DNA from: Anagrus nilaparvatae
Lineage: Eukaryota; Arthropoda; Insecta; Hymenoptera; Mymaridae
Length of the DNA stretch: 64,000 nucleotides
Assembly (NCBI GenBank): GCA_022575985.1
Contig: JAKSXM010000007.1
Coordinates: 62,278,501-62,342,500 of the forward strand
Direction: 5' to 3'
This document shows positions 10,599-60,079 of the stretch, in pieces; the first letter of the stretch is position 1, and every line of letters starts with the position of its first letter. The notes under the pieces are model-generated. The model had not been told where the DNA came from. It ran no database searches and saw only the letters and a program-made list of their open reading frames with translations. A program made the position numbers and the translations under genes.

Positions 10599-12368
10599 GT
10601 CCTGTTGCCATCAATGCTATTTAATGCCCTAAAATGCCATAAAAGCTCCGTGGAAAAACATTTTGACAAACTATTTTGCCAAATTCGTGGTCAATTTTGC
10701 GAAATAGACCCCGGATTCGTGTTTAGTGGGTCAAAAAACATAAATACCACCCATTTTTTTCCATGGAGCTTTTATGGCATTTTAGGGTATTAAATAGCCA
10801 CGGTTCGCTTATAGAGGAAATAGGTCTGGCAAAAATGCCGAAAGATTCTAAGCATCGGGGGTCAATTTTGGTACCGTATATAAACAGAATTCACCTTCAA
10901 ATAAATCAAACTCGTTCCTTTTTTGCCAATTTTTAGATATTAATTAATTTTTAAAATCCAGTTTTTTTACATTTAAAAAAATTTTTTTTTTTGATAATTT
11001 GAATAATTATTATTATTTAGTGTAAAATATTATTTAAACTCGGTAAAAAATTATAATATAACTAAGATACTAGAATGAATTTTGGCCCCCCCCCTCCCTC
11101 CTCCTACAACGCCTTTCAAATGCTCTAAAATGGCTTAAAAATGGGAAAAATCATTTAGAAAACATAAACATATTTAAGTAATGTATATGTTTATATGTGT
11201 GTGTATGTGTGTGTGTGTGTTTATATATGAGAAGGTGTATATGCATGTGTGTTACTGGAATGTATATAAAAATACATAAAGTAAAATTAATGTTTTTTCT
11301 CTTAATATTACAATTATTATATATTTTAGAGTGGACCTAAAATTGGGGTTTTAAGAAAAATTTTGCTCCCCGGGTTTTTTCGTGAACTTTTGATCATAAA
11401 AAGTCCCCAGCTCCAAGGATTTTGCTTTCGCTTTTCAAAAACGCGTGCCTTTAAGCATCTCAATTTTCCCATTTAAATAACATGGGAATTTTGACTTTTT
11501 AGCTTTCTAATCTTTTACAAAGCTTAAAAAGTGTTTTGAACAGCTGCTAATCGATGAAAATACTATTTAAATATATAAAAAACGTTACCCAACCTCAAGT
11601 AGCAAAAAAAAATATTTTAGAAGCAATTTTACCGGTAATAAATGTAAAAAAAATCCTCATTGAAATCATAATAGAAAGATCTGGAGCTCTTTTTACGATG
11701 ATTGAAATAATATGGCTACATGTAATTTAAATGGAGCATTTTTTTATGTTTATTACCAGACAAGCAAAACCAAAATCCTTGGAGCTAGGGACTTTTTATG
11801 ACCAAATGTTAAGCAAAAAACCAAGGGAGCAAAGTTTATCTTAAAACTCCATTTTTAGATCCACTGTAAAGTATTTGCATTCATGAATGTACACACATAT
11901 ACACCTTCTCATTCATAAACACACACAAAACAACACGTATATAAGTAAATATATTTCTTATTTACATTTATGTTTTCTACATGATTTTTCCCATTTTTAA
12001 GCCATTTTAGAGCATTTGGTAGGCGTAGAAGAGGGGATATGGGGGGGGGGAAATTCATGCTAGTATCTTATTCATATAATTTTCTACCGAGATTAAATAA
12101 TTTTTTCCACTAAATAATAATTTTTTATTCGTTTTCAAAAAAAAATTAAAAAAAAAAGATTTTAACAAAAAAATGTAAAAAAAACTAGATTTTAAAAATA
12201 AAGTAATGTCTAAAAATTGGCAAAAAAGGAACGAGTTTGATTTACTTGAAGGTAAATCCTGTTTGTGTACGGTACCAACATTGACCCCCCATGCTCAGAA
12301 TCTTTCGGCATTTTTGCCAGACCTATTTCCTCTATAAGCGAACCGTGTAGCATTGTTGGCGACAGGAC
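10599..12368. mobile_element. Large foldback transposon with TA target duplication
   Basis: Two long inverted arms face each other around a centre near 11450-11740. Terminal GTCCTGT...ACAGGAC is flanked by TA on both sides (597-598 in the 10.5 kb line and 12369-12370), as for Tc1/mariner-type insertions. Arm blocks that pair include GGTTCGCTTATAGAGGAAAT, GGCAAAAATGCCGAAAGATT, a C-run near 11085 against a G-run near 12040, a TG-rich block near 11200 against a CA-rich block near 11920, and AAAGTCCC..CCAAGGATTTTG against its complement near 11780. No transposase frame is present, so it is non-autonomous. Confidence 0.85.
10620..10794. mobile_element. 175-bp palindromic MITE nested in the foldback arm
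   Basis: Inverted ends of about 40 bp (TTTAATGCCCTAAAATGCC at the left, its near-complement at the right, about two mismatches) are flanked by TA at 10618-10619 and 10795-10796. The opposite arm of the host foldback gives the empty site, ATGCTACACGG near 12345-12352, directly showing an insertion at a TA. It is younger than the arm duplication of the host element. No coding capacity. Confidence 0.85.
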
Positions 12369-16471: not shown

Positions 16472-16545
16472 GGCTCGTTAGCTCAGTTGGTTAGAGCGCC
16501 GTGCTAATAACGCGGATGTCGCGGGTTCGATCCCCCCACGAGCCA
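16472..16545 (+). tRNA. tRNA-Ile (AAT anticodon)
   Basis: A 74-nt cloverleaf with a perfect 7-bp acceptor stem (GGCTCGT/ACGAGCC) and discriminator A, D arm GCTC/GAGC, anticodon stem CCGTG/CGCGG with loop CTAATAA and anticodon AAT, and T loop TTCGATC. The A box (TAGCTCAGTTGG) and B box (GGTTCGATCC) for RNA polymerase III are intact. There is no intron. The T stem is GCGGG/CCCCC, leaving one C-C mismatch where isoleucine tRNAs normally have C-G. The anticodon A34 would be read as inosine. It is probably functional, though the mismatch allows a decaying copy. It is opposite in strand to the host exons. Confidence 0.95.
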
Positions 16546-36480: not shown

Positions 36481-37690
36481 TTTTTTCAATGACTGTCATC
36501 AAATAATATGATTTAAACGTAGCTATCACAGTTTGATAACAAGAATTCTCCCGCGGATAACGAGGGATTCCTGTATGCAAAACTATGTTCTAAATCAAGG
36601 GACAAAATCTAATATTTTTTCCTTTGTTTGAAAAATAGCTATATTGTATCTAGATGCTTTTAATATACAACAAAATTACACCTTTGATACCAAAATCATC
36701 ATTTTCTATGGTTTATTGGTATGTATTGAATTATTTTCTCATCACTAATTATGGTTTTATAAAATTTTCTTTATATTTTTATAGCAGATATTCCCACACT
36801 CAAATATCTTTTCCTACATCGCTTTCTTATAATTTATACGTCGAACTAATATCTTACTTTCAGTTTAAAAAAAACTATTTTTACATATTTCGAAAACTTT
36901 TCCCATATAAATAATCATTACTTATTAAAACCTATATTCATTATTATCAATACATTGAAAATTTAATAAAATTTAAAACTTATAAAAATGCATTTTATGA
37001 AAATAATTTAAAGATACTTGCATTAATAATCGTTAAAGTATTCTAAAATATGATTAAATTAAACATTTTATTTTCATTAAACATATATTAACTTGGCAAT
37101 TATTTCTATAAAGTATTAAATTTTTGTATACGTTAAATTACTATTAACCAAAAAAAATTAAATCCTTAAGATGTCAACTCCTAATAATATTTATAACAGA
37201 ACGTTAAATTGAGCAAATATTGATCACATGCAGCTTTAAATAAAATTTTCAAGATCCTAATTTTCTTTTTTTAATTCAATATTTATTACCCAAAGAAATT
37301 TAGATAAAACCAAATTTTTAATAAATCGTCTAAGCTAATGTATAAACTTTTATACGTAAATAAAAACGTAATAAAATTTATTTTATGTATATATTTAAAT
37401 TATGTATGTAGAAGGTTTAAATGCATTTATAATATTTTATATCATGTACTTTTAAGAAAAAAAAAATTTTTTTATAACCTATAACTTTGTAAATCATGGA
37501 TTTCTTGTATTTTTTTATTAATGCCTACAACTTCAAAGATATAATGTTCAAATACCTTTTAACTTTTTACTTAATTTTCAGTATTTAGAATTTATTTATT
37601 TTACATTTACTTGTTTATGTTCGCTTGTAATGCTTGGTAATATTTGCTATACTTGATATGGAACACAGTACTAAGAGTAGAGAAATCCCC
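36481..37690. other. AT-rich non-coding DNA
   Basis: I see nothing supported here beyond short chance frames. Confidence 0.55.
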
Positions 37691-37995
37691 TGCAAATATT
37701 ACTATCTATTATTTGTTGGAAATAGACAGGATTTTATGGATCAACAGTGGGTTTGTTAACCGGCATGCTAAATTTTCTTTACGTTTAATTACATATCCCT
37801 CTGGCTGTTGCATGTAAATTATTTCCTTTAAAATTCCATTAAGGAAAGCTGTTTTTGCATCATAATGCTTGACAATGAGTTTCTTGTTACCTGAAGCTGC
37901 TAAAAGAGTTCTACAGGTAGCTTGTTTTATAACTGGAGAATTTCATCGTAGTCAACACCGTATTTTTGCGAAAAACCTTTTGCTACTAGTCGAGC
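37690..37995 (-). mobile_element. Copia-type element, downstream half of split RT
   Basis: Read on the minus strand from 37995 the frame continues VAKGFSQKYGVDYDEI, then after a 2-bp deletion VIKQAT-like sequence, NKKLIVKHYDAKTAFLNG and QQPEGYVI, all classic Ty1/copia reverse-transcriptase blocks. The RT then stops abruptly at a segment (AACAAACCCACTGTTGATYC, ending in CTATTTCCAACA) that is repeated near 49962-50010. I infer that this is LTR end and that the rest of RT and RNase H were deleted. The element is dead: internal deletion plus frameshift, then split by the large insertion at 37996. Confidence 0.85.
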
Positions 37996-38429
37996 CAGGA
38001 CTGGATTACGCGATACCAATGATACCAGTGATACCAGTGATATTGGTATCACTTTTAATATTGGTATTGGTATCGGTATCACTTTTGTTATATTTATTAA
38101 TTATTAATTTTGAAAGGTTTACTATAGGTTTTTTGGGTCGCTGAATCCGAATCCGGGGTCGAAAATTGCTGGAAAATAAGGGAAAACCTTTAAAACAGCA
38201 AAACTACCCATTTTTAGAGTTATTTTTGCAAAATAATGGGACTGAAGCTAAAATTATCAAGTAAATGCCATTTTTTCAAGATTATTTAACAAAACATTGA
38301 GTGAACTTGATAACACACCAAAAGTTGTTAAGTAGGGCAAATTATAGGGGAGAAAAACTGCCCCTAGAATAAGGAAAATTACAAAAAACATAAAGAAAAG
38401 AACATTTTTTCTATTTTTTATCTCTGTTT

Positions 38430-39060
38430 CTAGTATTTATTAATATTTTATGGTATTTAATAATATTATGACATATTAATCATCCTTCGGGGAGGGGGGT
38501 GAAAACGGATAGAAACTACCCCAAAAATTAAAAAAAAAATTAAAAAACGGTTAAATTTTTTTTCTTGCTTTTTCTTTTGCAACCGAAAAAATAGCAATAT
38601 AAGTAGTACAAAAAAATTTTTCAACCCCCCATCCGTGAGGGTAAACCCACCCCTAAATTTGAAAACTATGAAAATCATAATGAACAATTTTTTTTTTTAA
38701 CTTTTCAATCTAAAGTCTAGTATTTAATAACATTTCGTGGCAATTTACCCTTCTGCAATATGTTAGTCGTCCCCAGGGCTTAAAAAGTGGGTGAAAACTA
38801 CCCTTAAAAATCATAAAAATATTAGAAAAATAGTTAAAATTTTCTTTTACTTTTTGTTATGCAACAGAAAAAATAGAAACTTAAAAAGTAGAAAAAAAAT
38901 TCAGCAACCTGGGTGGGGGGAGGGACACGCCCTTAAATATTAAAACTATGCAAAAAGAAACAAACGACTCTCTTTTACTTTTCAATCTTGAATATTTAAT
39001 AACATTTTATGAAATTATACACACCATAAAACATATTAACCCCAGGGAGCAAAAATGTGT
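38430..39060. repeat. About 270-bp tandem repeats, three copies
   Basis: TATTTAATAA..ATTT recurs at 38454, 38721 and 38993. Each unit has a GGGTGAAAACT.ACCC block, a GCAAC.GAAAAAATAG block and a G- or C-rich block (AACCCCCCATCC / GGGTGGGGGG). A further diverged copy in the same orientation lies at about 48420-48640, near the other end of the transposon. Confidence 0.75.
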
Positions 39061-39289
39061 AAAAAATATCCCGACAATTTAAAGAAAAGTAGGATTCCGT
39101 ATTTCTGGACACATAACCTAAGGAATTAATATTTTAAATAAAAAAACTTATAACCGGTTTGTGTACACACAACCAAAATGCATGGAACATGTTTACTTAC
39201 ATCTGTAATCTTACAGCATAGACACACAAAAAACAATACAATTTCCTATTTTTATAATTTGTAATTATCACATTTACTAAATGTTAAGA

Positions 39290-39595
39290 TTCTAAACCCA
39301 AACTATTATGATTTCCTAAACGCGTATTATTCTAGGTCCCTCAATCAAAAAAATTTGTTAAGTCCCTAAACCCAAATTATTCTATAAGTATATTTTATAA
39401 GTCCCAAAATTGAAATTATTCCAAGTCCCATTTGACCCCCCCGCTTAAATGGGACATATTTGACCCCCCCCTTAAATGGGACAAATTTGACCCCCCCCCC
39501 CTTAAATGGGACAAATTTGACCACCCCCCTTAAATGGGACATATTTGACCACCCCCCTTAAATGGGACAAATTTGACCCCCCCCCCTTAATTTTC
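39290..39595. repeat. C-rich 28-bp minisatellite with degenerate AAGTCCC repeats
   Basis: From 39430 to 39590 about six copies of a unit like AATGGGACAAATTTGACC followed by a C-run and TT vary mainly in C-run length (6-11). Just upstream, units with AAATTATTCTA and AAGTCCC recur every 35-40 bp. An inverted relative lies at 48120-48300 and another G-rich relative outside the transposon at 53140-53220. Confidence 0.85.
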
Positions 39596-39734
39596 AAATT
39601 CTGAAGTACCCCCTCCCTATAAACATGTTCCATGTTAACAACACCCCAAGCCTTATATCCATATTTATCAAGAACGTGTTAAATAAAAAAAAAAACTATA
39701 CCACAAGCCATACACTTCGCATTAATCCAGAGAC

Positions 39735-40060
39735 TTTTAGAACATTAATCCAGAAAATAGGTATATTTCGTGTTTCAAAACTAGATTTAACTAAATGTAC
39801 TGATTTGAAACAAGAAATAAGCAAAATTCGGAAGAATTTGATTTTCTGGCTTTAAAACAAAAAGATATAATCTGGAAAAGAAGAGAGAAATTATTTTTTG
39901 ATTAAAACCAAAAAATAGATTTCTTCTGTTTTGTAAACCAGAGTTTTAATTATTTCTAGATTTGAAACACGAAAGTAGATTTTCAAAAATTATAACAAAA
40001 TAACTTCTGGATTTAAAACCAGAAATTAATTAAATTCCGTTTTACAAAATAGAATCAATA
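39735..40060. repeat. Degenerate palindromic short repeats (TCTGGATTTAAAACCAGA)
   Basis: Variants of TTCTGGATTTAAAACCAGAA recur roughly every 35-60 bp, e.g. near 39840, 39900, 39950 and 40000. The 76-codon plus-strand frame at 39625-39855 passes through them and is not supported as a gene. Confidence 0.5.
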
Positions 40061-41340
40061 TATTTTCCTGCAATGTATCAAATAAATTGAATCTCCAATA
40101 GGAACATGTAATTTTTTTTTTAACAAAAAATTTTCACTGTTAATTAATACATTTCTCTATATTTATAATTTTCTTATGAAAGTCACGCTATCGTCCAAAA
40201 ATACCATCCAAAGTTTTACGAAAAAAAGTTTATCTTTATACAAAAGATAATAAAATATAAAAATTAAATAAAACTTAAATTAACAAATCTAACAAAAATT
40301 AAGGTACCAAATAAATAATTAAAAAGAATATATATTTGGCTCATAAATGTTATAAACAATTAAGCTGTTAATTAACAATTAGCGTTTTGGGGTCCATCCG
40401 TTATATTTTTGAAAGATTCATTTTATTTGATTGTTATAATAAATATTAACTCTTTGCCACCATGCTAAATATTTTAGAGTTGACTAGGTAATTGTAATAA
40501 ACAATTAACTTTTCAAATGGATTTAAGAAAATTTGAGTTTAAAATCTTAGCATCTACTATAGGTAATAATTACAAATTATAATTATTAAAAATTTTATTG
40601 TAATTATCCCATATTCAAGGCAAATAAAATTACTAAATTCATTTCTAATTAAGTCTATACCCATATAACATATGATAGGGATCCTTTTCTTAAAAAGGAC
40701 ATGTTGATCGCAACAGTAACTATGTACATTGTTATAGCTAAAGAGTCATTCTGATTGGTTCTCACAATAATGTAAACAATACGCATACACAAATTCAAAT
40801 TTTAAATGCAATAACATAAACATCAAGTCAGCCCAAAAAGTTAGGTTATATAATTTATTTAGGTATTCCAGTATTCAGTGCAGTAAAAAAAAAAAATAAA
40901 AAATTTAATTCAAATATAAAAATAAAATTTCTTTGTGGATGAAAGGTTATAATTTTTTTTTTTATGGATGGATTGAGATATTTAGTTTTTTTTTATTTAT
41001 TAATTTATCCCGCATAATACATAATATATGTATTGAACGATCTAAACGGTGTCAAGTTTTACTTAGTCCTATCTAACCAAGTAAAATTAAATTTTACGAA
41101 AAATATTTCCAAATAAGTGGACACTATTAAAAAAACGCTGCCAAGTGATTGGCACTATATATGGTTCCTCATTAACAATAGCAAAATATTTATAATGGTC
41201 TATTTTATCTAATAAAAATTATAATTTGAGATATCAGTATTTCATAAAAAAAAGTTAAATACCGTATTTTAAAAGAAAAAAAATGTTGCTGTGATTTAAT
41301 GTTTTTTATTTAACAAATTTGTAGAAAAAAATTTTCAATA
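40061..41340. other. AT-rich interior of the large transposon, unclassified
   Basis: I find no gene or clear repeat. GGTTCCTCATT near 41163 is inverted as ATGAGGAACC near 42394-42403, suggesting that the satellite block between them is a unit of its own. Confidence 0.4.
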
Positions 41341-42238
41341 AACTAGGTATTACACTTAAAAAAAAAACAATATATATTACAGATTTTTTAATTTTTTTGT
41401 TTTATTAATATTGAGAAAAAAATTTTGAAAAAATTAGGTATCAGGTCCAAAAAAATGCTATAAACCATAGTTCTAAAACTAGTACTCTCAAAGAAATAAA
41501 TTAGGTACTACGTCCAAAAAGAAAAAAAAAATTAGTGTTTTTTGTATTTTTTTGTGAAAAAAATTTTGAGAAAAAAATTTTCAAAAAATTAGTTATCAGA
41601 TTCGAGATATCGAGTAAAAATCGTACTTTCAAATATAGGTACTTTCGTGGAAATAAATGAGGTATTACATCCAAATTAAAAAAAAAAAAAAGTAGTTTGA
41701 GATTTTTTGATAAAAAAATTTTTGAAAAAAAAATTAGGTCTTAATTCCATAATGGTTGTTAAATACCACCGATTGCAAAATTTTCAAATATTAGTACTTT
41801 CATGGAATTAAAGGAAGTATTACACTAAAAAAAAAAAAAATATTACAGATTTTTTAATTTTTTTGTTTTTTTAATTTTGAGAAAAAAATTTTGAAAAAAT
41901 TAAGTTTCAGGTCCAAAAAATTACTATAAACGATATTTCTAAAACTAGCAAACTCATAGAAATCAATTAGGTACTACATCCAAAAATAAAAAAAAATTAA
42001 GTTTTTTTTGTATTTTTTGGTGAAAAAAATTTTGAGAAAAAAATTTTCAAAAATTAGTTATCAGATTCGAGATATCGAGTAAAAATCGTACTTTCAAATA
42101 TAAGTACTTTCATGGAAATAAATGAGGTATTACATCCAAATTAAAAAAAAAAAAAAGTAGTTTGAGATTTTTTGATGAAAAAATTTTTGAAAAAAAAATT
42201 AGGTCTTAATTCCATAATGGTTGTGAAATTTCACCGGT

Positions 42239-42240
<2 letters not shown>
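41340..42240. repeat. Higher-order repeat: about 156-bp monomers in a 467-bp A-B-C unit
   Basis: Six monomers of about 155 bp start with variants of (T)(T/G)AGGTA(C/T)TAC near 41340, 41501, 41658, 41812, 41968 and 42125. Monomers one and four, two and five, three and six are most alike: AGGTACTACRTCCAAAAA at 41503 and 41969, and AGGTATTACATCCAAATT at 41659 and 42126. That spacing of 466-467 bp is a two-copy higher-order repeat, with the last monomer cut off by the (AC)n tract. Confidence 0.8.

Positions 42241-42290
<50 letters not shown>
42241..42290. repeat. (AC)n microsatellite
   Basis: CATACATA leads into about 20 uninterrupted CA units. The Thr-His and Cys-Val open frames reported by translation on either strand are artefacts of this tract. 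Confidence 0.97.
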
Positions 42291-44160
42291 GACTTTTTTT
42301 AAAAACTGGTTTTTTAGCTTCCTGAGATCCCAAAACGTGCTTATATGCCAAAAAATCAAAAATCAAAATTTCATCTATCACAAAGGTTCCTCTATGAGGA
42401 ACCAAAAATAATTTAAAAAACTGATAATTCAGATAAAATGTGAAATAATTAGATTTTAATATATTAATAAGGAACATATTCAAAAGCAGGGGTTCTCCAT
42501 CAGGTCCAGTAATCGAGATAGCAAGGGGATGTGAAATTAGACTTCAAATTATTCGAGTATTGGCATTTCAAATAATTTCAATTTAAAGACTTAATAATTT
42601 AAAAATTATTTGACCTCTGAAGGGGGGGGGGGGGGGTGAGCAACTTAAATAATGAAAGAAAGTCTACTAAGGGTATTTTCGGATCGCTGATTCTGAAAAT
42701 CAGAGTTTAGCTCAGGGAAAAATATGTCTAACCCCCTTAATTAAGCAAAATTATCCCTTTTAATGGTGACTTTGCAACATTCACTATTTGTAGGAAGATT
42801 TAGCCTATTACATAGGTTTTTGGAGCTGCTAATTTCGAATTTCAATATCCCATGCATGGGAAATGGGTCAAACATCCTTAAATTACTAAAAAAATCTCTT
42901 TTTAGGGGTGATTCTTAGATAATCGCAAATTTTGAGAATTTTTCACACGCAAGACCCTAGAATTCGAGATTTGTGACCGAGGAACGTACTTGGAGCAAAA
43001 ATTTGTTAAGACTTGCGAATACAGTTATGACATATTCCTGGTGAAGGGTATTTTTTTATTAAAGGATGGTTGATCCATTTTCCATGTACGGGATCTTTAT
43101 TTAATAACCTAAATCTCATTACATGATGGCCAGGAAATCGAACTTTATTGGCCACTGTCCATAAAAATTAATTATGCATTCAAAGAACGTTTTCAAAATA
43201 CGTTTTTGCGTGGAAAAAAAAAATTTTCATATATTTTTAAAAATAATCAAATAGTTGCAAAAAATCTAGAATCGAGAGGAAGCTAAAATTTAAAAAAAGG
43301 ATTATTTTTATGATATAGAATAAAATAAAACGATTAGCAGAGAAAAACAGGAGTTAAAAGTTATTTATTTTTGTAATATTTAATATTAAAAAACATAAGT
43401 TAGATGTAATTTAAAAGATGAAATAAGCTTAAAAAAGTTACAATGCTCATAAAATTGAAACTTTTGGGAGTAACCTATTAAGAAAAATATAGGAGATGGG
43501 TAGGAAATCCATAAGAGGTGTTAAGACATGTATAGAAGATATAAGAAAGGTACCAGAGATTAATTAAAAGGGTAGGTCAAATCGGTTTAAAATGATTTTA
43601 AAGTTAGATAATTACCGAAACAAATTGATTTGGTGAATTTAAAAATAGAACGGGGTTCAAAAATTCCTGACTTAAGGGGAAGGGGTTAAACGGGTTTTAA
43701 AATAATTTAAATTTAGGGACTTAAAATAATCCGGTTTGAGAGAAGTAATAATAATTTGGGCTTTAAGACGTAACACCTACTATGCATAAAAATTTCGAAT
43801 TATAAAATTAGCGATTTGTTTTGTTGCAGCATACAAGTTCCATGTATTTAAATTGTGTTTAACTTGAAAAATTACAATTTTTTTTTGTAATTCATCTTTT
43901 TTTTAAGAAAAATAAGTGTTATTCAAAGAATTATCGAAGCAAAGAAATATCAGTTAAGGAAATCTTTTTTCATGATGCTTATTCGTATATGTAAATTCCT
44001 AATCAATATAAATTATAGTCACAACAGTTAATTCGTAATTTCTTAAGCAAAAATTTACTATCATGATCAAAATAAATATTATTTCTTATACTGAACAGAA
44101 GTTTAATACAGAAAGTGTAGTCTCTGCGCGAAGCGCAGTTGAATCTAGTAAATAAAAAAA
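42291..44160. other. Transposon interior with diverged repeat blocks
   Basis: It contains a run of 15 G (42622-42636), two blocks related to a 'TTTTGGGTCGCTGAATCC' repeat (42670-42900), and AAATTTAGGGACTTAAAATA near 43720, an inverted relative of the 39300 repeats. A small perfect hairpin (CTGCGC GAA GCGCAG) lies near 44126-44140. No gene is seen. Confidence 0.5.
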
Positions 44161-44164
44161 GGAA

Positions 44165-45090
44165 TAAATAAAAAAAAATCAGGCCTTACAGCGCATTCAT
44201 AGTGAGTAAAAGTGATCGGTCGATCGATCGACTGATCTTATCAAGAGTATTATAATCGCATTGTTTTTTAGATCCGGGTAGATCTGCAGCTACTAGCTGA
44301 ATCTAGGAAGTCAAAACACGACCCAGACACAAGATATAAATAAAAACATTTAAAAATTTTTTAATAATATCAGTTGATCGATCGACCGGTCAGTTATACT
44401 CACTATGAACGCGCCCTTCCTCCCACATAATTTAAGAGAGTAATTTATAATAAAAAATGAAATGTCTGGCCTTGCACCTACATAACCTAAGGAAGTATTT
44501 TTATTTATAATAAAAACGAGACGTCAAGCCTTACACCCACAAACCTAAGGGAGTATTTTATAATAAAAAACGACATGTCAGGCCTCATACCCACATAACC
44601 TAAGGGAGCGAATTTAACAACAAACGATACGTCAAACCTTACACCCCCATAACCTAAGGGAGTAATTTATAATATAAAACTGCACTTCAGGCATTATACC
44701 CACATAACCTAAGGCAGTAATTGATAATAAAAAACTTTACGCTAGGCCTTAAACCCACATAACCTAAGGTAGGAATTTATAGTAAAAGAGTTAATTTAAA
44801 ATAAAAAATGACACGTCATGCTTTACACTAACATAAGCTAAGGCAGTAATTTAAAATAAAAAACACCTCAAGCCTTACACCCACATAACCTATGGGAGTA
44901 ATTTATAATAAAAAATGACACATCAAGCCTAATCCCAAAATAACATACAGGAGTAATTTATAATAAAAAACGAGATGTTAAGCATTAACCCCAAATAACA
45001 TAAAGGAATAATTTATAATAAAAAAGACACATCATGCCTTACAGCCGCATAAACTGAGGGATTTATTTCTGGTAAAAAACGAAACGCCAG
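44165..45090 (+). repeat. About 57-bp satellite array, forward orientation
   Basis: Roughly 12-15 degenerate copies contain ACGTCAAGCCTTACACCCAC, ATAACCTAAGGGAGTAAT and TTATAATAAAAAACGAC. Copies differ by point changes and small indels, as expected of an ageing array. It is interrupted by a MITE at 44191-44414. At about 45090-45110 the array reverses orientation. Confidence 0.9.
44191..44414. mobile_element. 224-bp MITE inside the satellite array
   Basis: Inverted ends of about 45 bp start GCGC(A/G)TTCATAGTGAGTA and contain GGTCGATCGATC. The flanks CCTTACA and CCTTCCT both correspond to the same place in the satellite unit, so they are probably a diverged 7-8 bp duplication. The end sequence resembles hAT termini, but the exact boundary is not resolved. 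Confidence 0.7.
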
Positions 45091-45099
45091 TTGCAAGTC

Positions 45100-47335
45100 C
45101 TGACGCGTCGTTTTTTATTATAAATTACTGCTTTAGTTCATGGGGGTTTGAGCCTGGACATGTCGTTTTTTATTATAAAATCCTACCTTCGGTTATGTGG
45201 GTATAAGGCCTGGCGTGTCGTCTATTGTTTTTAATTACTACCGTAGGTTATGTAGGTGTAAGGCTTGACATGTCATTTATTATTATAAATTATTAACTTA
45301 GGTTATATGGGTAAAAGGCTTGACGTGTAGTTTTATATTATAAATTACTGCCTTAGGTTATGTGGGTGTAAGGCTTGACGTGTCGTTTTTTATTATAAAT
45401 GCATACTTTATGTTATTTGGGGGTAGTCAACTTTTTTTTATTATAAATTACTCCCATAGGTTATTTGGGTGTAAGGCTTGACGTGTAGTTTTTTAATTTA
45501 AATTACAGCCTTAAGTTATGTTAATGTATGGTCTGATGTGTCGTTTTTTATTATAATTTACAGCCTCAGGTTATATATTGGTGTAAGTCCTAAAATGTTG
45601 TTCTTTATTATAAATTCCTACATTAGGTTATGTGGGCGTAAAACCTGGCGTATCGTTTTTTACCAGAAATTACTCCTTTATGTTATGTGGGTGTAAAACC
45701 TGAAGTGTCGTTTTTTAATATTAATTACTACCTTAGGTTATGTGAGTATAAGGCTTGACGAGTAGTATTATATTATAAATTACTCCCTTAGGTTATGTGG
45801 ATGTAAGGCTTGAGTGTCGTTTTATATTTTAAATTACAGTTTTACGGTACCTGGGTGTAGGGCTTGAGGTTTCGTATTTTATCATAAATTCCTGTCTTAG
45901 GTTTTGTTGATGTAAGGTCTGACATGTAGTAAATTATCATATATTCCTACCTTATCATATATTCTTACCTTATCATAAATTCCTTTCTTAGGTTTTGTTG
46001 GTGTAAGGTCTGACATGTAGTAAATTATCATATATTCCTACCTTAGGTATCGTGGGTGTAAGGATTGGCATGGCTTTTTTTATTATAAATTACTGCCTCT
46101 GGTTATGTTGGTGTAAGTCCTAAAATGTTGTTTTTTAATCTAAATTCCTACCTTAGATTATGTGGGTGTAAGGCCGGACGTGTCGTTTTTTACCAGAAAT
46201 TACTCACTTAATTTATGTTGGTGTAAAACCTGACATATTATTTTTTAAGATTAATTATTACCTTAAGTTATGTGGGTGTAAGACTCGATATGTCATTTAT
46301 TATTATAAATTATTCACTTAGGTTGTGTGGATATAAGGCTTGACGTGTAGTTTTCATTATAAATTACTCCCTTGGGTTATGTAGGTGTAAAGCTTTACGT
46401 GTCGTTTTTTATTATAAATGCATACTTTATGTTATTTTTGGGTAGCCATTTTTTATTATATATTACTCCCCTAGGTTATTTGGGTGTAAGGCTTGACGTG
46501 TCGTTTTTTATTATAATTTACTCCTTTGTGTTATTTGGTGGGTAAGGCTTGATATGTCATTTTTTATTATAAATTACTCCCATAGATTATATGGGTGAAA
46601 GGCTTGACCTGTCGTTTGTTATTCAATTTTCTACCTTACGTTATGTGGGCATAAAGCCTGACATTTAGTTTTATATAATAAATTTCTCCCTTAGGTTAGT
46701 TTTTTATTTTAAATTACTGCCTTAGGTTATGTTAGTGTAAGGCCGGACGTGTCTTTGTTATTATAAGTTACTCCCTTAGTTTATGTGGGTGTAAGGCTTG
46801 ACGTGCCGTCCTTTATTATAAATTACTCCCATAGTTTATTTAGGTGTAAAGCTTGACGTGTCGTTTTTTATTATAAAATACTCCCTCATGGTATGTTGGT
46901 GTAAGGCTTGACGTGTAGTTTTATATTATAAATTACTCCCTTAGGTTATGTGGGTGTAAGGCTTGACGTTTTTTTTTTATTTTAAATTACTGCCTTAGGT
47001 TAAGTGGGTGTAAGTCTGGATGTGTCGATTTTTGTTACCTAAAATAAATGTGGATGTTAGGCTTAGCGTGTTTTTTTGCCAAAAAGTACTCCCTTAGGTT
47101 ATGTAGATATAAGGCTTGAAGCGTCGTTTTTTTTTTTTTAATTACTCTCTTAAGTTATGTGGATGTAAGGCCTAGTTTGTCGTTTTCTATTATAAAATAC
47201 TCCCGCAGGTTATGTGGTTGTAAGGCTTAACGTGTCGTCTTTTATTATAAATTACTGCCGTAGGTTATGTGGGTGTGTGGCTTGTCGTGTCGTTTATTAT
47301 TATAAAATACTCCCTTATATTATGTGGGTGTACCA
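45100..47335 (-). repeat. About 57-bp satellite array, reverse orientation
   Basis: About 38 copies of the same unit as 44165-45090 but inverted (CTTAGGTTATGTGGGTGTAA, GGCTTGACGTGTCG, TTTTTTATTATAAATTACT). Larger periodicities are superimposed: TGCATACTTTATGTTATT occurs at 45401 and 46418 (about 1,017 bp apart), the TTTTTACCAGAAATTACTC variant near 45658 and 46186, and a 112-bp duplication at 45900-46045. These show higher-order amplification. Confidence 0.9.
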
Positions 47336-48050
47336 AAGGTAGGAATTCATGATAAAATTCGACGTGTCAACCCTTAAACTAAGATAACCTTAAAACAGAA
47401 AAAGTACCTATTTTTAGGATTATTTTATAATATTTTGTAACTGAACCAGAAATGATGAAATAATTATTTAACAATGTAGAAATTGCATTAATATACGTGT
47501 TGATTTTTTTTTGTGAAGCTTATAAATAGATTTTATTGGTCTTTATTTTTGCAAATAAATGTCCTTACAGTCCTTATAATTATGATACTTATAAATCGGG
47601 ATCAAATTTTGGTATACACCCTGCAAAAGTAACTAACAAAATGTTAGTTTTACTTAATGCTAAAGCATAATTGGGATATAAGGGTATATTTTAGGGGGGA
47701 AAATCTACCCCCAATATGAGAAAAACTACAAAAATGATAATAACTATAAAAACATAAGATATTTTTTAATTTTAACGACCTTTTACGAATGCAGATTTTA
47801 TATACTTTTAATCATCATTATACTGCTTTTAAATATTTACATATGAAATACAATGTATTTTCATACTATGTAGAAGCAGTTTTTAAATAATTTTTTAAAA
47901 ATACTAGATCTTTTTGTAAATAATTTTTATAAACTTTTTTAAGCTAATTAAAGCTTAAAGAAGCTAATTCTTGAAGAAAAAAAATGTCCATCATTAAATG
48001 TCCGTCGTTAAAATTAAAAAATATTAATTTACTATCGAATGTATAAAATT
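47336..48050. repeat. Re-inverted satellite copy and direct copy of the left transposon segment
   Basis: At 47336-47390 one satellite unit returns to forward orientation. Then ACCTTAAAACAG.AAAA and GGGGGAAAATCTACCCCC blocks repeat, in direct orientation, the segments at 38180 and 38350. So the right half includes a direct rather than inverted copy of part of the left half. Confidence 0.6.
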
Positions 48051-48640
48051 TCTTTCTTACATAAGATATTTTTTGTATATTAACATGGAAGATATTTATA
48101 GGCAGAGGGGGTTTTTCAAGCAATTCATTCGGTTGGGGGGGGGGGTGTGCCGCATTTGGGGGATGGGTCAAATGGACTAAGCATAATTTCGATGTAGGGA
48201 CTTAAAATAATTTGATTTTAGGAACTTAGAATAATTCAGTTTTAAAGAATTAAAATAGTTCCGATAAATGGCTTTAGAATAATATGGATAATAGGAGCGC
48301 TTAAAATTATATTTTTTTGGTTTAAAGATTTCAAATTATAAAGGTTTTAAAATTAAAAAAATATATTTGAACATGTTTTATCATCGGTGTGGTTCTGAGT
48401 TCCACACCGGTTGTTTTTTTAATTTTTGAATATTGTATTAAATAATATTTAATGATATTTTACTATTCCACGACTTAAAAACCCTTCAATAGAGGGTGAA
48501 AAAGGGTAAAAACTGCCATTTATTTTAAAAAAGTAAGGCAATCAAAATTTTTTTTAAAACCTTTCTTTTAGCATTCAAAAATACATCAACATAAGCAGAC
48601 ACGTATCCAGAAATTTTTGTCAGGGGGGTGGGGGGGAGGA
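48050..48640. repeat. Inverted copy of minisatellite block plus direct 270-bp unit
   Basis: TTAACATGGAAGATATTTAT, GGTTGGGGGGGGGG and TGGGTCAAATGGACT, then AGGGACTTAAAATAATTTG units, are the reverse complement relatives of 39300-39640. After 48420 a copy of the 270-bp repeat appears in direct orientation. The Pro-rich frame at 47944-48171 is produced by the G-run and is not a gene. Confidence 0.65.
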
Positions 48641-49490
48641 ATAGAATTTTTTGTAATATTTTTATGTAGTTTTTATATCCGAAAAAAAGTTTACAATCAT
48701 AGTTGAAATACTCCTTGGATCCTTGAATGAAAAAATGGAAACTGTCGCCTACTATCAGTGAAATTTATAAATTAAGCATTTTATAAACTTCTTTGATCAT
48801 GAAATCGATTATTATTTGATAATAGAATATATTTTTCTAGTATATAAATATCAAAAAAAAAAAGTTTTAGTGTTTAGAGATGATTGATATCATAATAATA
48901 ACCCAATTACATGTATAAGAGACAGGATAAAATTAAGCTACTGACCTAAAAATAATCTTTGTCTATAACTATTTTATCAAAAAATTGAATGTTTTATTGC
49001 TATATTTTTTCTGGAATCATGAATAAAACAGGACAGTATTGATATAAAAAACAATTCTATAATTATGTTTGAAAACCTAAAATTTTATAGATTTTATATT
49101 GGTATGCATCTAAAATACGATTTTTAGAAAGAGCAGCAGTTCTAGTTTTTTGCCAGGTGATTTTGTCAAGTATAAAGTATCTTTATTGAGTAGAAACAAT
49201 CCGTTCTTGTTAGCATTTTGATTCAGTTATATTTTCATTCTGGACAGGTGTGAATGGACATAACATTACTTTTTACCCTTTACGGGGGTTGGCGCGTGGA
49301 GGGTGCAGGGGCGGAGCCTCTAATTTATGTATATATTTGATTGTTTTATTAATTAAAACATTTATTTAACGTTAAAATAAGAAAATTATAAAATTTTATA
49401 GTGATACCAATTATACCAGTGATACCAATGATATTGGTATCACTTTTGGTATCACTTTTGTTGGTATCGGTATCGCGTAATCCAGTCCTG

Positions 49491-50010
49491 AGTCGAGCCT
49501 TGTATCTAATTACTCTTCCTTCTGCATCTTGTTTTTTTTTAAATACCCATTTGCTTATCATTTGTCGTCCTTGTGGAATTTCCTCAAGATTCCAAGTACC
49601 ATTTTCAATTAGTTATTCAATTTCTTCGTTCATTGTTTGAATCCAAAAATCCTTTTCTGGACTATTTAAGGCTTCTTCTACACTTCTAGGTTCATCCTCA
49701 ATTACCATTTTTAAGGTACCCATATAGCAATCAGGTGGTGCACCTGTATTTTCCCTTCCTGAACGTCTTAATTCCGTTTCATGCCTTAACTTGATATTAT
49801 TTCCATCTTAAGTATCATAGAATTCTTCATCTGCATCTTTAAATAGTAAACTATTTTCTTTATTTAACGTGAACCTTATTTTTATTTTTATAATTTTTTT
49901 TTCATGTAAACTGGTTTGCATTTTATTATTTATAACACTCTATGCGATCCTGGATCCATAACCTGTTAGAAATAGACGCAGGATTTTTAGAATCAACAGT
50001 GGGTTTGTTA
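49491..50010 (-). mobile_element. Copia-type element, upstream half (integrase end and RT start)
   Basis: Minus-strand reading from about 49860 gives FKDADEEFYDT, RRSGRENTGAPPDCYM, EDEPRSVEEALNSPEKDFW, NGTWNLEEIPQGRQMISKWV and KKKQDAEGRVIRYKARL, the standard junction between integrase tail and reverse transcriptase in Ty1/copia polyproteins. Two in-frame TAA stops occur (near 49810 and 49615). The frame continues into 37995 once the 11.5-kb insertion is removed. CTGTTGATTCTAAAAATCC and CTATTTCTAACA near 49962-50010 match 37690-37750 and are taken as LTR end. Gag, protease and most integrase are absent. Confidence 0.87.
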
Positions 50011-58400: not shown

Positions 58401-59544
58401 CATGACTTTCTTGACAGTGCTGTGGCCGAAAAATACGTAGTTTTTAAATTTTAACAAAAACTCGCAAAAATTATTCTTTTTTACCTCCTTTTTGAGCCAA
58501 AATTTGCCAATGTCAGGTCACATCGATTAGCTTTTAAGCGAAATTCAAGCAGTATCTTTTACATTTATTTTGATGTAAATTGCTTCATACGATTCAATAC
58601 AATAAACAAAATTCAAGGTAACTAAAAACATCCTAACCTTTATTAGATTTCGCCAATTTCACCAAAATCTCGGCTGAAATTAAGACCAGTCACCATACCT
58701 TTGGTCTATATCTCTTTTTAATTAATATGATAAAAAAAGACAGCAATTAAAACTTTATGCAGCCTGATATATTAATTACAACACAGGTCATTTTTTTTAA
58801 CCTTACACTTAGCTGCTCCGCATTGCTAAACTTTCTTGGAAATCACGCATCGTAAATATATAAAACTGCACAAATATATATTAATTTCTTTTTTTTAAGC
58901 AAAAGAAAATAACATAACAGCAGTTACATTAATAAAAAATCTTTAAAAAAGAGATAATATGAGCTCGTTATATGAATATTAGCTTCTAAAAAAATAACTT
59001 ATTTTTAGAGCAAAAGAATTTCTTTTTTTGTTCTTTTGCAAACTCGTAGAGGACAAATTTTTGCATTCTTTTTTTTTTAAACATTATTTATTTGTGAAAA
59101 CCCCAAAAGACTTGTATAACAAAAGCTAAACTAAAGTTTAACTTTACGCATATTATAAAAAATCTTTATCTTTCTATGTATATAGTAGTGTGACTATAAT
59201 TAAAAAGAATAAATATATATATATTTATATATCACCCAAAACTAACCATTAGCACACTTGTGTTAGCACAAGAAAAATGAATAGCTCTATCATTTAGTAA
59301 TTACGCCCTCAACGTCGCTTGAAAGAATAAATATAAATGGTACTATATATGAAAAAAAAAGACGCGTTAACCGGAATAAAAAAATCACCCTATGGACAAA
59401 ATACAAACTCGACATTCATACAGCGTAGTAAAACTCTCGGATACATAAAAAAATGACAAAAAAAAACTAAATTTTATACATTTATAAATATTCAAAAACA
59501 ATTTATGAACAATAAATTATATTTAAAATTTAAAAAAAACTTAC
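58401..59544. other. Intronic AT-rich DNA downstream of exon 59545-60079
   Basis: It begins the intron after the donor at 59544. I see no further exon with a convincing frame and paired splice sites. Confidence 0.5.
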
Positions 59545-60079
59545 TTCTAAATGGTCGTCCTTCTTCCGGTGTTGACCTTTCGGTAATTTCTGAACAGGGT
59601 GTTGCACTAGCTTCTCTATCTTCATCATCGGGCGACGGACCACGAATAGTCGATGGTGGTGCCGTAGCTGGTGACGATCTCGTTGTTGAATTAGCTGGAC
59701 TAGCAGCTGTTCCTAAATGATCACTTTGTGCACCAGGTGTTGTTGGTGGTGGTGCAGTTGCACCTTGAAATATATTTGACATGCCAGTTAATGCAGCAAT
59801 TCCACCAGTTACAGATATATTTGTACTATTTGATGTTGGTGTTGTAACAACAATTCCTGGTGTTGTTGATTGACTTGTATTTGTATCGTTTTCTAATTTT
59901 AAACGTTTTTGTGGTGGTGCGAATGCCGACGGTGCTAATGGACGAAATGCACTACCGAATGGTATACGATGCTCAAATGGATGGAGAAATTGATGTTGAA
60001 GATGTAACATATGATGAAGACGATAATCAAGTGTTGCTGCTGCACTAAATGGACTTTGAAGCTCTTTTGTATCACCGAT
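59545..60079 (-). CDS. Long coding exon of a probable nuclear regulatory protein
   Basis: The exon encodes 178 codons plus one base. The acceptor is TTTGAATAG before 60079 and the donor is a strong GTAAGT after 59545. It enters in phase 0, matching the exon ending at 62865, and leaves in phase 1. It opens IGDTKELQSPFSAAATLDYR, followed by a His/Leu/Phe-rich stretch (LHHMLHLQHQFLHPFEHRIP), FGSAFRPLAPSAFAPP, a basic QKRLKLE patch like a nuclear localisation signal, a long Thr/Ser/Asn/Pro-rich low-complexity region and an acidic Ser-rich tail with PSPDDEDREAS. This composition is common in transcription factors, but no DNA-binding domain is visible, so the family is unknown. Codons end mostly in A or T. 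Confidence 0.85.

What the first reader, a model, noticed from the sequence alone, without database searches (positions are those of the whole stretch)
37996..49490. Giant (11.5 kb) hAT-type transposon with no transposase that carries satellite arrays
Perfect 22-bp inverted ends starting CAGGACTGG, an exact 8-bp duplication AGTCGAGC and a restored Copia frame on excision define the insertion. Most non-autonomous hAT elements are under a few kb. This one holds at least four tandem-repeat families and no gene. A mobile element that moves whole satellite arrays would offer a route for satellites to spread, and it may be undescribed.
Basis: partly seen in the sequence, partly recalled or inferred. 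Interest (0 to 1): 0.9.

Follow-up and report, generated by a model that had tools for sequence, protein, structure and literature searches.

The report
Giant transposons that carry satellite arrays
In this insect genome, likely a wasp's, at least 16 closely related giant jumping elements of 8 to 17 kb each carry the same kind of satellite DNA array to new places, and they are likely moved by a P-element-like enzyme encoded in a larger relative, so satellites can spread here by riding a transposon.

Summary
The insertion is real and is one of a family. It is 11,495 bp, with 22/22-bp inverted ends, an exact 8-bp target duplication and a seamless Copia empty site. The window's own genome holds 19 forward and 19 reverse perfect copies of the end (reversed-pattern control 0). 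They pair into 17 elements of 8.0-26.9 kb, and 17 of 17 have exact, mutually different 8-bp duplications. Sixteen form a close family, and all 16 carry the 55-bp array (44-59 monomers). Two copies on different contigs are 99.92% identical over 8.8 kb.

"hAT" is not supported. The 17th copy (26.9 kb, same 22-bp ends, adjoining sequence 87-89% alike) encodes an 868-aa protein whose model's best PDB match is P-element transposase (E 1e-12; hAT Hermes 2e-5). I infer that this lineage drives the gene-less copies in trans. The same relative encodes a baculovirus-F-like envelope-type protein and a Ulp1-type protease. The 155/466-bp and (AC)n repeats are private to the window copy; only the 55-bp array is family-wide.

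Not settled: whether the array also exists outside the elements, and whether the family is active today.

The parts
37988..37995 (.). left copy of the 8-bp target duplication AGTCGAGC
37996..38017 (+). left terminal inverted repeat, 22 bp perfect
38012..38080 (.). left subterminal block of GATACC/GGTATC motifs, palindromic (possible transposase binding region, inferred)
   Evidence: nearly the same letters in the 15 other close copies
37996..40682 (+). left arm, matched in 14-15 of 15 close copies except 39246-39745 (9-10 of 15)
39430..39590 (+). 28-bp minisatellite, 5.7 copies; matched at its place in 10 of 15 close copies
40683..44148 (.). segment missing from most close copies (present in part in 1 of 15); no duplication seen at its borders, so a deletion in the others is as likely as an insertion here
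41347..42236 (+). 155-bp repeats in a 466-bp tandem duplication, private to this copy (0 of 15)
42240..42290 (+). (AC)n microsatellite, private to this copy
44191..44414 (.). palindromic MITE-like insertion inside the satellite (outer 60 bp of arms 49/60 identical); present at 96-100% in 13 of 15 close copies, 41 bp of it in the other 2
44438..45059 (-). 55-bp satellite array, 11 monomers in reverse orientation
45092..47312 (+). 55-bp satellite array, 39 monomers in forward orientation (one more reversed monomer at 47341-47390)
47759..49490 (+). right arm, matched in 13-15 of 15 close copies from 47996 on, in 8 of 15 before
49403..49474 (.). right subterminal block of GATACC/GGTATC motifs
49469..49490 (-). 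right terminal inverted repeat, 22 bp perfect
49491..49498 (.). right copy of the 8-bp target duplication AGTCGAGC
49499..49858 (-). interrupted target: decayed Copia reverse transcriptase, first part (ends ...VIRYK)
37717..37995 (-). interrupted target: decayed Copia reverse transcriptase, second part (starts ARLVAKGF...)

Best explanation
The window element, which encodes no recognisable transposase, is one of sixteen closely related giant DNA transposon copies that each hold a 55-bp satellite array between perfect 22-bp inverted ends, and they are likely cut out and reinserted in trans by a P-element-like transposase encoded in a 26.9-kb relative with the same ends. Shown: the ends, the 17 of 17 exact target duplications, the empty site here, the array in 16 of 16 close copies, and near-identity of some copies at unrelated sites. 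Inferred: that the transposase of the 26.9-kb relative (or of a sister) recognises the 22-bp ends and the adjoining GATACC repeats, joins both ends and moves everything between them, so that the array, an old MITE-like insertion inside it, and in some copies a second transposon nested in the array travel as passengers. Array length varies between copies (44-59 monomers).
For:: 19 forward + 19 reverse perfect ends, reversed-pattern control 0; 34 of the 38 pair as 17 elements of 7,971-26,880 bp, 4 stand alone; 17 of 17 pairs have exact, all different 8-bp duplications; the 15 other close copies align to the window copy over 51-81% of its length at a mean 91-98% (left arm 96-99.7%); 16 of 16 close copies hold 44-59 monomers of the 55-bp repeat; the 10-kb stretches at the 4 one-ended loci hold 46-60; the copies at C62:11.36 Mb and C196:10.91 Mb are 99.92% identical over 8,806 aligned bases, with different target duplications; three copies share, at 99.6-99.7%, a transposon nested in their array (a fourth holds part of it), so the array moved after that nesting; the MITE-like insertion in the array is in 13 of 15 copies. 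Relative at C196:17.63 Mb: 22/22 same ends, exact duplication, 670 bp at 87% and 212 bp at 89% next to the ends. Its 868-aa protein: Foldseek best hits are P-element transposase 6p5a/6pe2 (E 1.2e-12, probability 1.00; Hermes 2bw3 E 2.2e-5); 13 of 46 aligned family members match Pfam TNP-like_RNaseH_N, best E 1.6e-4; invariant D154, D265 and QxCE491 fit a DDE active site (the reading is mine).
Against: The 868-aa protein itself misses every Pfam cut-off (Tnp_P_element E 0.035), only 3 of 46 members match that HTH model, and no THAP domain was found. The P-element match covers only part of the model (TM-score 0.36 by query length, 0.64 by target length, rmsd 7.8). The 26.9-kb relative has none of the 55-bp array and matches the window copy over only 8.7% of its length, so the trans link rests on the ends. 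A hAT transposase elsewhere using the same ends was not searched for. Seven of the 15 close copies match the window's array at below 90% in much of its length. No activity, insertion polymorphism or read support was tested.
Confidence: 0.8

Rival explanations
1. A hAT family: the giant copies would be mobilised by a hAT transposase.
For: 8-bp duplications and 22-bp ends fit hAT (10-25 bp ends, 8-bp duplications: PMC3942097, passages). The CAGG... start resembles hAT ends (recalled).
Against: The one relative found with identical ends and a transposase-like gene has a P-type fold (Foldseek P element 1.2e-12 against Hermes 2.2e-5; 13 of 46 members match TNP-like_RNaseH_N). No hAT domain in six frames of the window copy. 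8-bp duplications are equally a P feature (PMC1562414, passages).
Confidence: 0.12
2. A composite or macrotransposon: two short palindromic elements in direct orientation flank unrelated DNA and move it, as linked Ac/Ds elements do in maize.
For: Beyond the 16-bp tip the two ends resemble each other more in direct (score 51) than in inverted orientation (31), and each is palindromic. Maize macrotransposons of 10.3 and 28 kb, and up to 100 kb, are described (PMC9910405 and PMC3260210, passages).
Against: No short pair of ends was found: the smallest of 17 pairs is 7,971 bp, although only perfect 22-mers were searched. All close copies keep the same asymmetric ends and arms, so they multiply as one family now.
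Confidence: 0.05
3. A short element inserted first and the satellite grew or landed inside it afterwards, so the array never moved.
For: Tandem arrays can expand inside transposons, as in Tetris of Drosophila virilis (PMC4079207, abstract).
Against: Sixteen of 16 close copies at different sites hold the array, two of them 99.92% identical throughout. Monomers differ by a mean 21.6% (46 of 51 monomers) while the 30 bp of ends and duplication here differ by none; at 20% divergence an intact 30 bp has a chance of 0.0012.
Confidence: 0.01
4. Assembly artefact: unrelated DNA joined between two Copia halves.
For: No reads could be inspected.
Against: Seventeen pairs with exact, different duplications are hard to get by misjoining, and the contig is large (C62 is 74.1 Mb).
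Confidence: 0.01

Closest known systems
P-element superfamily and its MITEs (Anopheles gambiae P elements, PMC1562414, passages)
   Same: 8-bp duplications, inverted ends, transposase fold of the 26.9-kb relative, non-autonomous derivatives that keep only the ends
   Different: 8-17 kb non-autonomous copies with a satellite array; 22-bp ends against 27-31 bp in A. gambiae; no THAP domain seen in the relative's protein, which the paper says all known P proteins have; the relative is 26.9 kb and holds virus-type genes
Cg_HINE non-autonomous Helentrons of Pacific oyster (PMC7492417, abstract)
   Same: non-autonomous elements whose central tandem repeats are carried through the genome
   Different: Helentron, which I recall as rolling-circle type without inverted ends and 8-bp duplications; here inverted ends with 8-bp duplications and an array that turns direction inside the element
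Tetris foldback transposon of Drosophila virilis (PMC4079207, abstract)
   Same: non-autonomous DNA transposon that feeds satellite DNA
   Different: its repeats lie in the inverted ends; here the array is central and the ends are 22 bp
hAT-derived MITEs of Atlantic cod (PMC12368964, passages)
   Same: elements without transposase that hold tandem and inverted repeat units (167-169 bp) over several kb
   Different: mean lengths 1.3-5.8 kb, tied to inversion breakpoints; here a dispersed family with exact target duplications and a separate internal satellite
Ac/Ds macrotransposons of maize (PMC9910405, PMC3260210, PMC4270019, passages)
   Same: cut-and-paste movement of 10-100 kb of passenger DNA between transposon ends
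   Different: arise from two linked elements of hAT type; here a multiplied family with a shared architecture
Teratorn of medaka (PMC10175614, start of abstract in a listing and one reference passage)
   Same: a composite of a DNA transposon with other mobile DNA, comparable to the 26.9-kb relative
   Different: piggyBac-like, 180 kb, joined to a herpesvirus (the last recalled); here P-like with one F-like gene and a protease

Membership tests
hAT superfamily | 8-bp target duplication | tested here: met
   17 of 17 pairs; shared with P elements, so not decisive
hAT superfamily | inverted ends of 10-25 bp | tested here: met
   22 bp; range from PMC3942097 passages
hAT superfamily | hAT-type transposase in the family | tested here: not met
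   window copy: none in six frames; relative with the same ends: P-type. Genome-wide hAT search not done
hAT superfamily | length 2.5-5 kb | tested here: not met
   7,971-26,880 bp in 17 pairs; range
P-element superfamily | 8-bp target duplication | tested here: met
   17 of 17; PMC1562414 passages
P-element superfamily | P-type transposase fold in an element with these ends | tested here: met
   26.9-kb relative: Foldseek 6p5a E 1.2e-12, TM-score 0.64 by target and 0.36 by query length; model pLDDT 79.9; 13 of 46 members PF21787
P-element superfamily | N-terminal THAP DNA-binding domain | tested here: not met
   no THAP match in the 868-aa protein or in any of 46 aligned members; a separate upstream ORF with zinc-finger-like cysteines was not scanned. 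So: P-like, beside rather than inside the classical P elements
P-element superfamily | ends of about 27-31 bp | tested here: inconclusive
   22 bp perfect, then imperfect motif repeats
Satellite-carrying non-autonomous DNA transposon | tandem array present in independent copies at different sites | tested here: met
   16 of 16 close copies, 4 of 4 one-ended loci
Satellite-carrying non-autonomous DNA transposon | same satellite also free of the element | not tested
   the pattern search was sent 7 times and never answered; none elsewhere in the window

The most novel reading that the evidence does not exclude
The parent of this family is a virus-like P-type transposon: a 26.9-kb element with its own P-like transposase, a Ulp1-type protease and an open baculovirus-F-like envelope gene as integral parts, which could pass between cells or species, while its gene-less 8-17 kb derivatives act as dedicated satellite shuttles that seed new arrays across the chromosomes.
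Probability: 0.25. Interest if true: 0.88.

Novelty: new variant of a known kind. Interest (0 to 1): 0.66.

Why it matters
How satellite DNA spreads to new chromosomal sites is an old question, usually argued from short repeats inside small elements. Here an array of 44-59 monomers of 55 bp is copied whole, in 16 related copies that can be ordered in time, with its inner turn of direction and nested insertions as markers. That lets one follow how arrays change after each landing. The P-like relative with an envelope-type gene would, if that gene is integral, add another kind of DNA transposon that has taken up virus genes.

Tried and rejected
Composite of two ~100-bp MITEs: formed from the direct similarity of the ends, dropped when the genome showed no short pairs of perfect ends. 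In-situ growth of the array: argued against by divergence, then refuted by the copies. Scans for ends and repeats: 0 hits for four patterns in viral contigs and for the ends in genome contigs; the GATACC pattern gave 2 viral contigs, of which the one I read is 65.7% GC and taken as chance (the script stopped before the second). A dispersed G-rich repeat in and outside the element (48080 against 53140) was borderline against 200 shuffles (68 against a maximum of 60; 73 against 71) and is not claimed. A host-gene search with a second ORF found nothing. None of the listings of my ten paper searches showed a P-type or hAT family of this size carrying satellite arrays; that is limited to open-licence papers, to those words and to the titles and abstract openings listed.

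Full report
What is there. The window element spans 37996-49490. It has 22/22-bp inverted ends and an exact 8-bp duplication, more than chance in this AT-rich window. It sits in a decayed Copia reverse transcriptase whose two halves match RVT_2 positions 1-35 and 36-54, so the site closes without a missing or extra residue. The host is a hymenopteran by its RNF220-like gene at 59495-60079: among 55 hits the best-scoring named ones are wasps, bees and ants; parasitoid wasp is my guess. The genome is 488.7 Mb in 393 contigs and the window is C62:62278501-62342500.

A family. The 22-bp end occurs 19 times forward and 19 times in reverse, with a reversed-pattern control of 0. Thirty-four of these 38 pair head to tail as 17 elements of 7,971-26,880 bp; 4 stand alone. 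All 17 pairs, the window copy included, have exact 8-bp duplications and no two are the same. I fetched the other 16 pairs and 10 kb at each of the 4 single ends. Fifteen of the 16 share arms with the window copy, mostly at 96-99% on the left; the sixteenth, at C196:17.63 Mb, shares only the ends.

The satellite moves. The 55-bp array of the window copy has 39 monomers in one direction and 12 in the other; the 46 of 51 that I compared are on average 78.4% alike. All 16 close copies carry it, with 26-41 forward and 12-18 reverse monomers, and so do the 4 single-ended loci. Eight of 15 match the window's array at 90% or more over most of its length, the others less. C62:11.36 Mb and C196:10.91 Mb are 99.92% identical over 8,806 bases with different duplications. 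A MITE-like palindrome inside the array (44191-44414) is present at 96-100% in 13 of 15 copies and cut to 41 bp in 2. In C62:28.35, C113:12.16 and C147:9.66 a second transposon sits at the same place in the array at 99.6-99.7% identity over the stretch, and C195:11.24 holds part of it. I read that nested element as pogo/Tigger-like from its ORF, by recall and without a family scan. Since these copies lie at different target sites, the array plus its nested insertions moved as one piece.

What is private to the window copy. Positions 40683-44148 are absent from most close copies and partly present in one, C113:13.9; I saw no duplication at the borders. The 155/466-bp repeats and (AC)n inside it occur in 0 of 15. 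The 28-bp repeat is matched at its place in 10 of 15.

Which transposase. In the close copies ORFs of 100 aa or more are few, and the large ones lie in inserts absent from the window copy. Pfam was run on the window copy only, and the control of that scan found 1 of 2 Copia pieces. The 26.9-kb relative has the same 22-bp ends, an exact duplication, and 670 bp at 87% and 212 bp at 89% beside the ends, with further weaker matches inward. It encodes an 868-aa protein with 154 relatives at E 0.001 or better; all those that bear an organism's name among the 120 listed are insects. From 45 of the 120 listed relatives, picked by hand mostly for coverage, plus the query I made alignment A1. Thirteen of 46 members match Pfam TNP-like_RNaseH_N and 3 match Tnp_P_element; the query alone stays below cut-off. 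NCBIfam gave nothing for it. Sequence searches of the PDB gave nothing useful. The AlphaFold model (pLDDT 79.9) finds P-element transposase first (E 1.2e-12), ahead of Hermes (2.2e-5) and RAG1 (7e-4 and weaker). I therefore place the lineage beside the P elements, without a THAP domain in this protein. In the genome the protein has 58 matching stretches, a lower bound; the next best copy, C317:14.22 Mb, is 83% identical with one stop.

The relative's other genes. The 26.9-kb element also holds a 608-aa Baculo_F match (E 4.3e-18) and a 390-aa C48/Ulp1 protease match (E 1.8e-5), a further ORF with zinc-finger-like cysteines, and its own ~309-bp tandem repeat. No direct repeats of 100 bp or more flank the F-like gene as LTRs would. 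Whether these genes belong to the element or are passengers is open: one copy was seen and the follow-up search did not complete.

Known or new. Transposons that carry satellite-like arrays are known: Helentrons in oyster (PMC7492417, abstract), Tetris in Drosophila (PMC4079207, abstract), several MITEs listed in PMC9659126 (passages), and hAT-derived MITEs with long tandem units in cod (PMC12368964, passages). Large passenger transposition by cut-and-paste is known from maize (PMC9910405, PMC3260210, PMC4270019, passages). What the listings of ten searches did not show is a multiplied family of 8-17 kb elements with inverted ends, P-like by its relative, built round a satellite array.

Limits. 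The genome search answered twice only. Imperfect ends, free arrays, hAT genes and the F-like gene were not searched genome-wide, so family size is a lower bound. Function, activity and trans-mobilisation are inferred.

Noticed in passing
26.9-kb relative, L031-L033 (C196:17630680-17657559): Same 22-bp ends; encodes a P-like transposase, a baculovirus-F-like 608-aa protein and a Ulp1-type protease.
   Followed up: partly
window 10799-12347: A 1,549-bp element with 51-bp perfect inverted ends starting CACGGTTCGC, long imperfect arms, and TAGC on both sides.
   Followed up: partly
window 37703-37758 and 49953-50010: The Copia fragment is bounded by a ~57-column direct repeat on both sides, perhaps LTR remnants.
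   Followed up: no
window ~36540-36580: CCGCGGATAACGAGGGAT, close to the end of the transposon nested in the arrays of C113_12.16 and others.
   Followed up: no
window 44438-47312 and the close copies: The satellite array changes direction inside the element; all 16 close copies have monomers in both directions.
   Followed up: partly
C62:71608194-71625022 (L016-L017) and C156:5590497-5603110 (L025-L026): Close copies enlarged by further inserts with long ORFs (518 aa; one that looks like a reverse transcriptase, not scanned).
   Followed up: no
C147:12073461-12080138: Cluster of broken copies of the P-like transposase gene with many stops.
   Followed up: no
window 59495-60079: Exon of an RNF220-like gene, which points to a hymenopteran host.
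   Followed up: yes
window 16472-16545: tRNA-Ile (AAT) gene.
   Followed up: no
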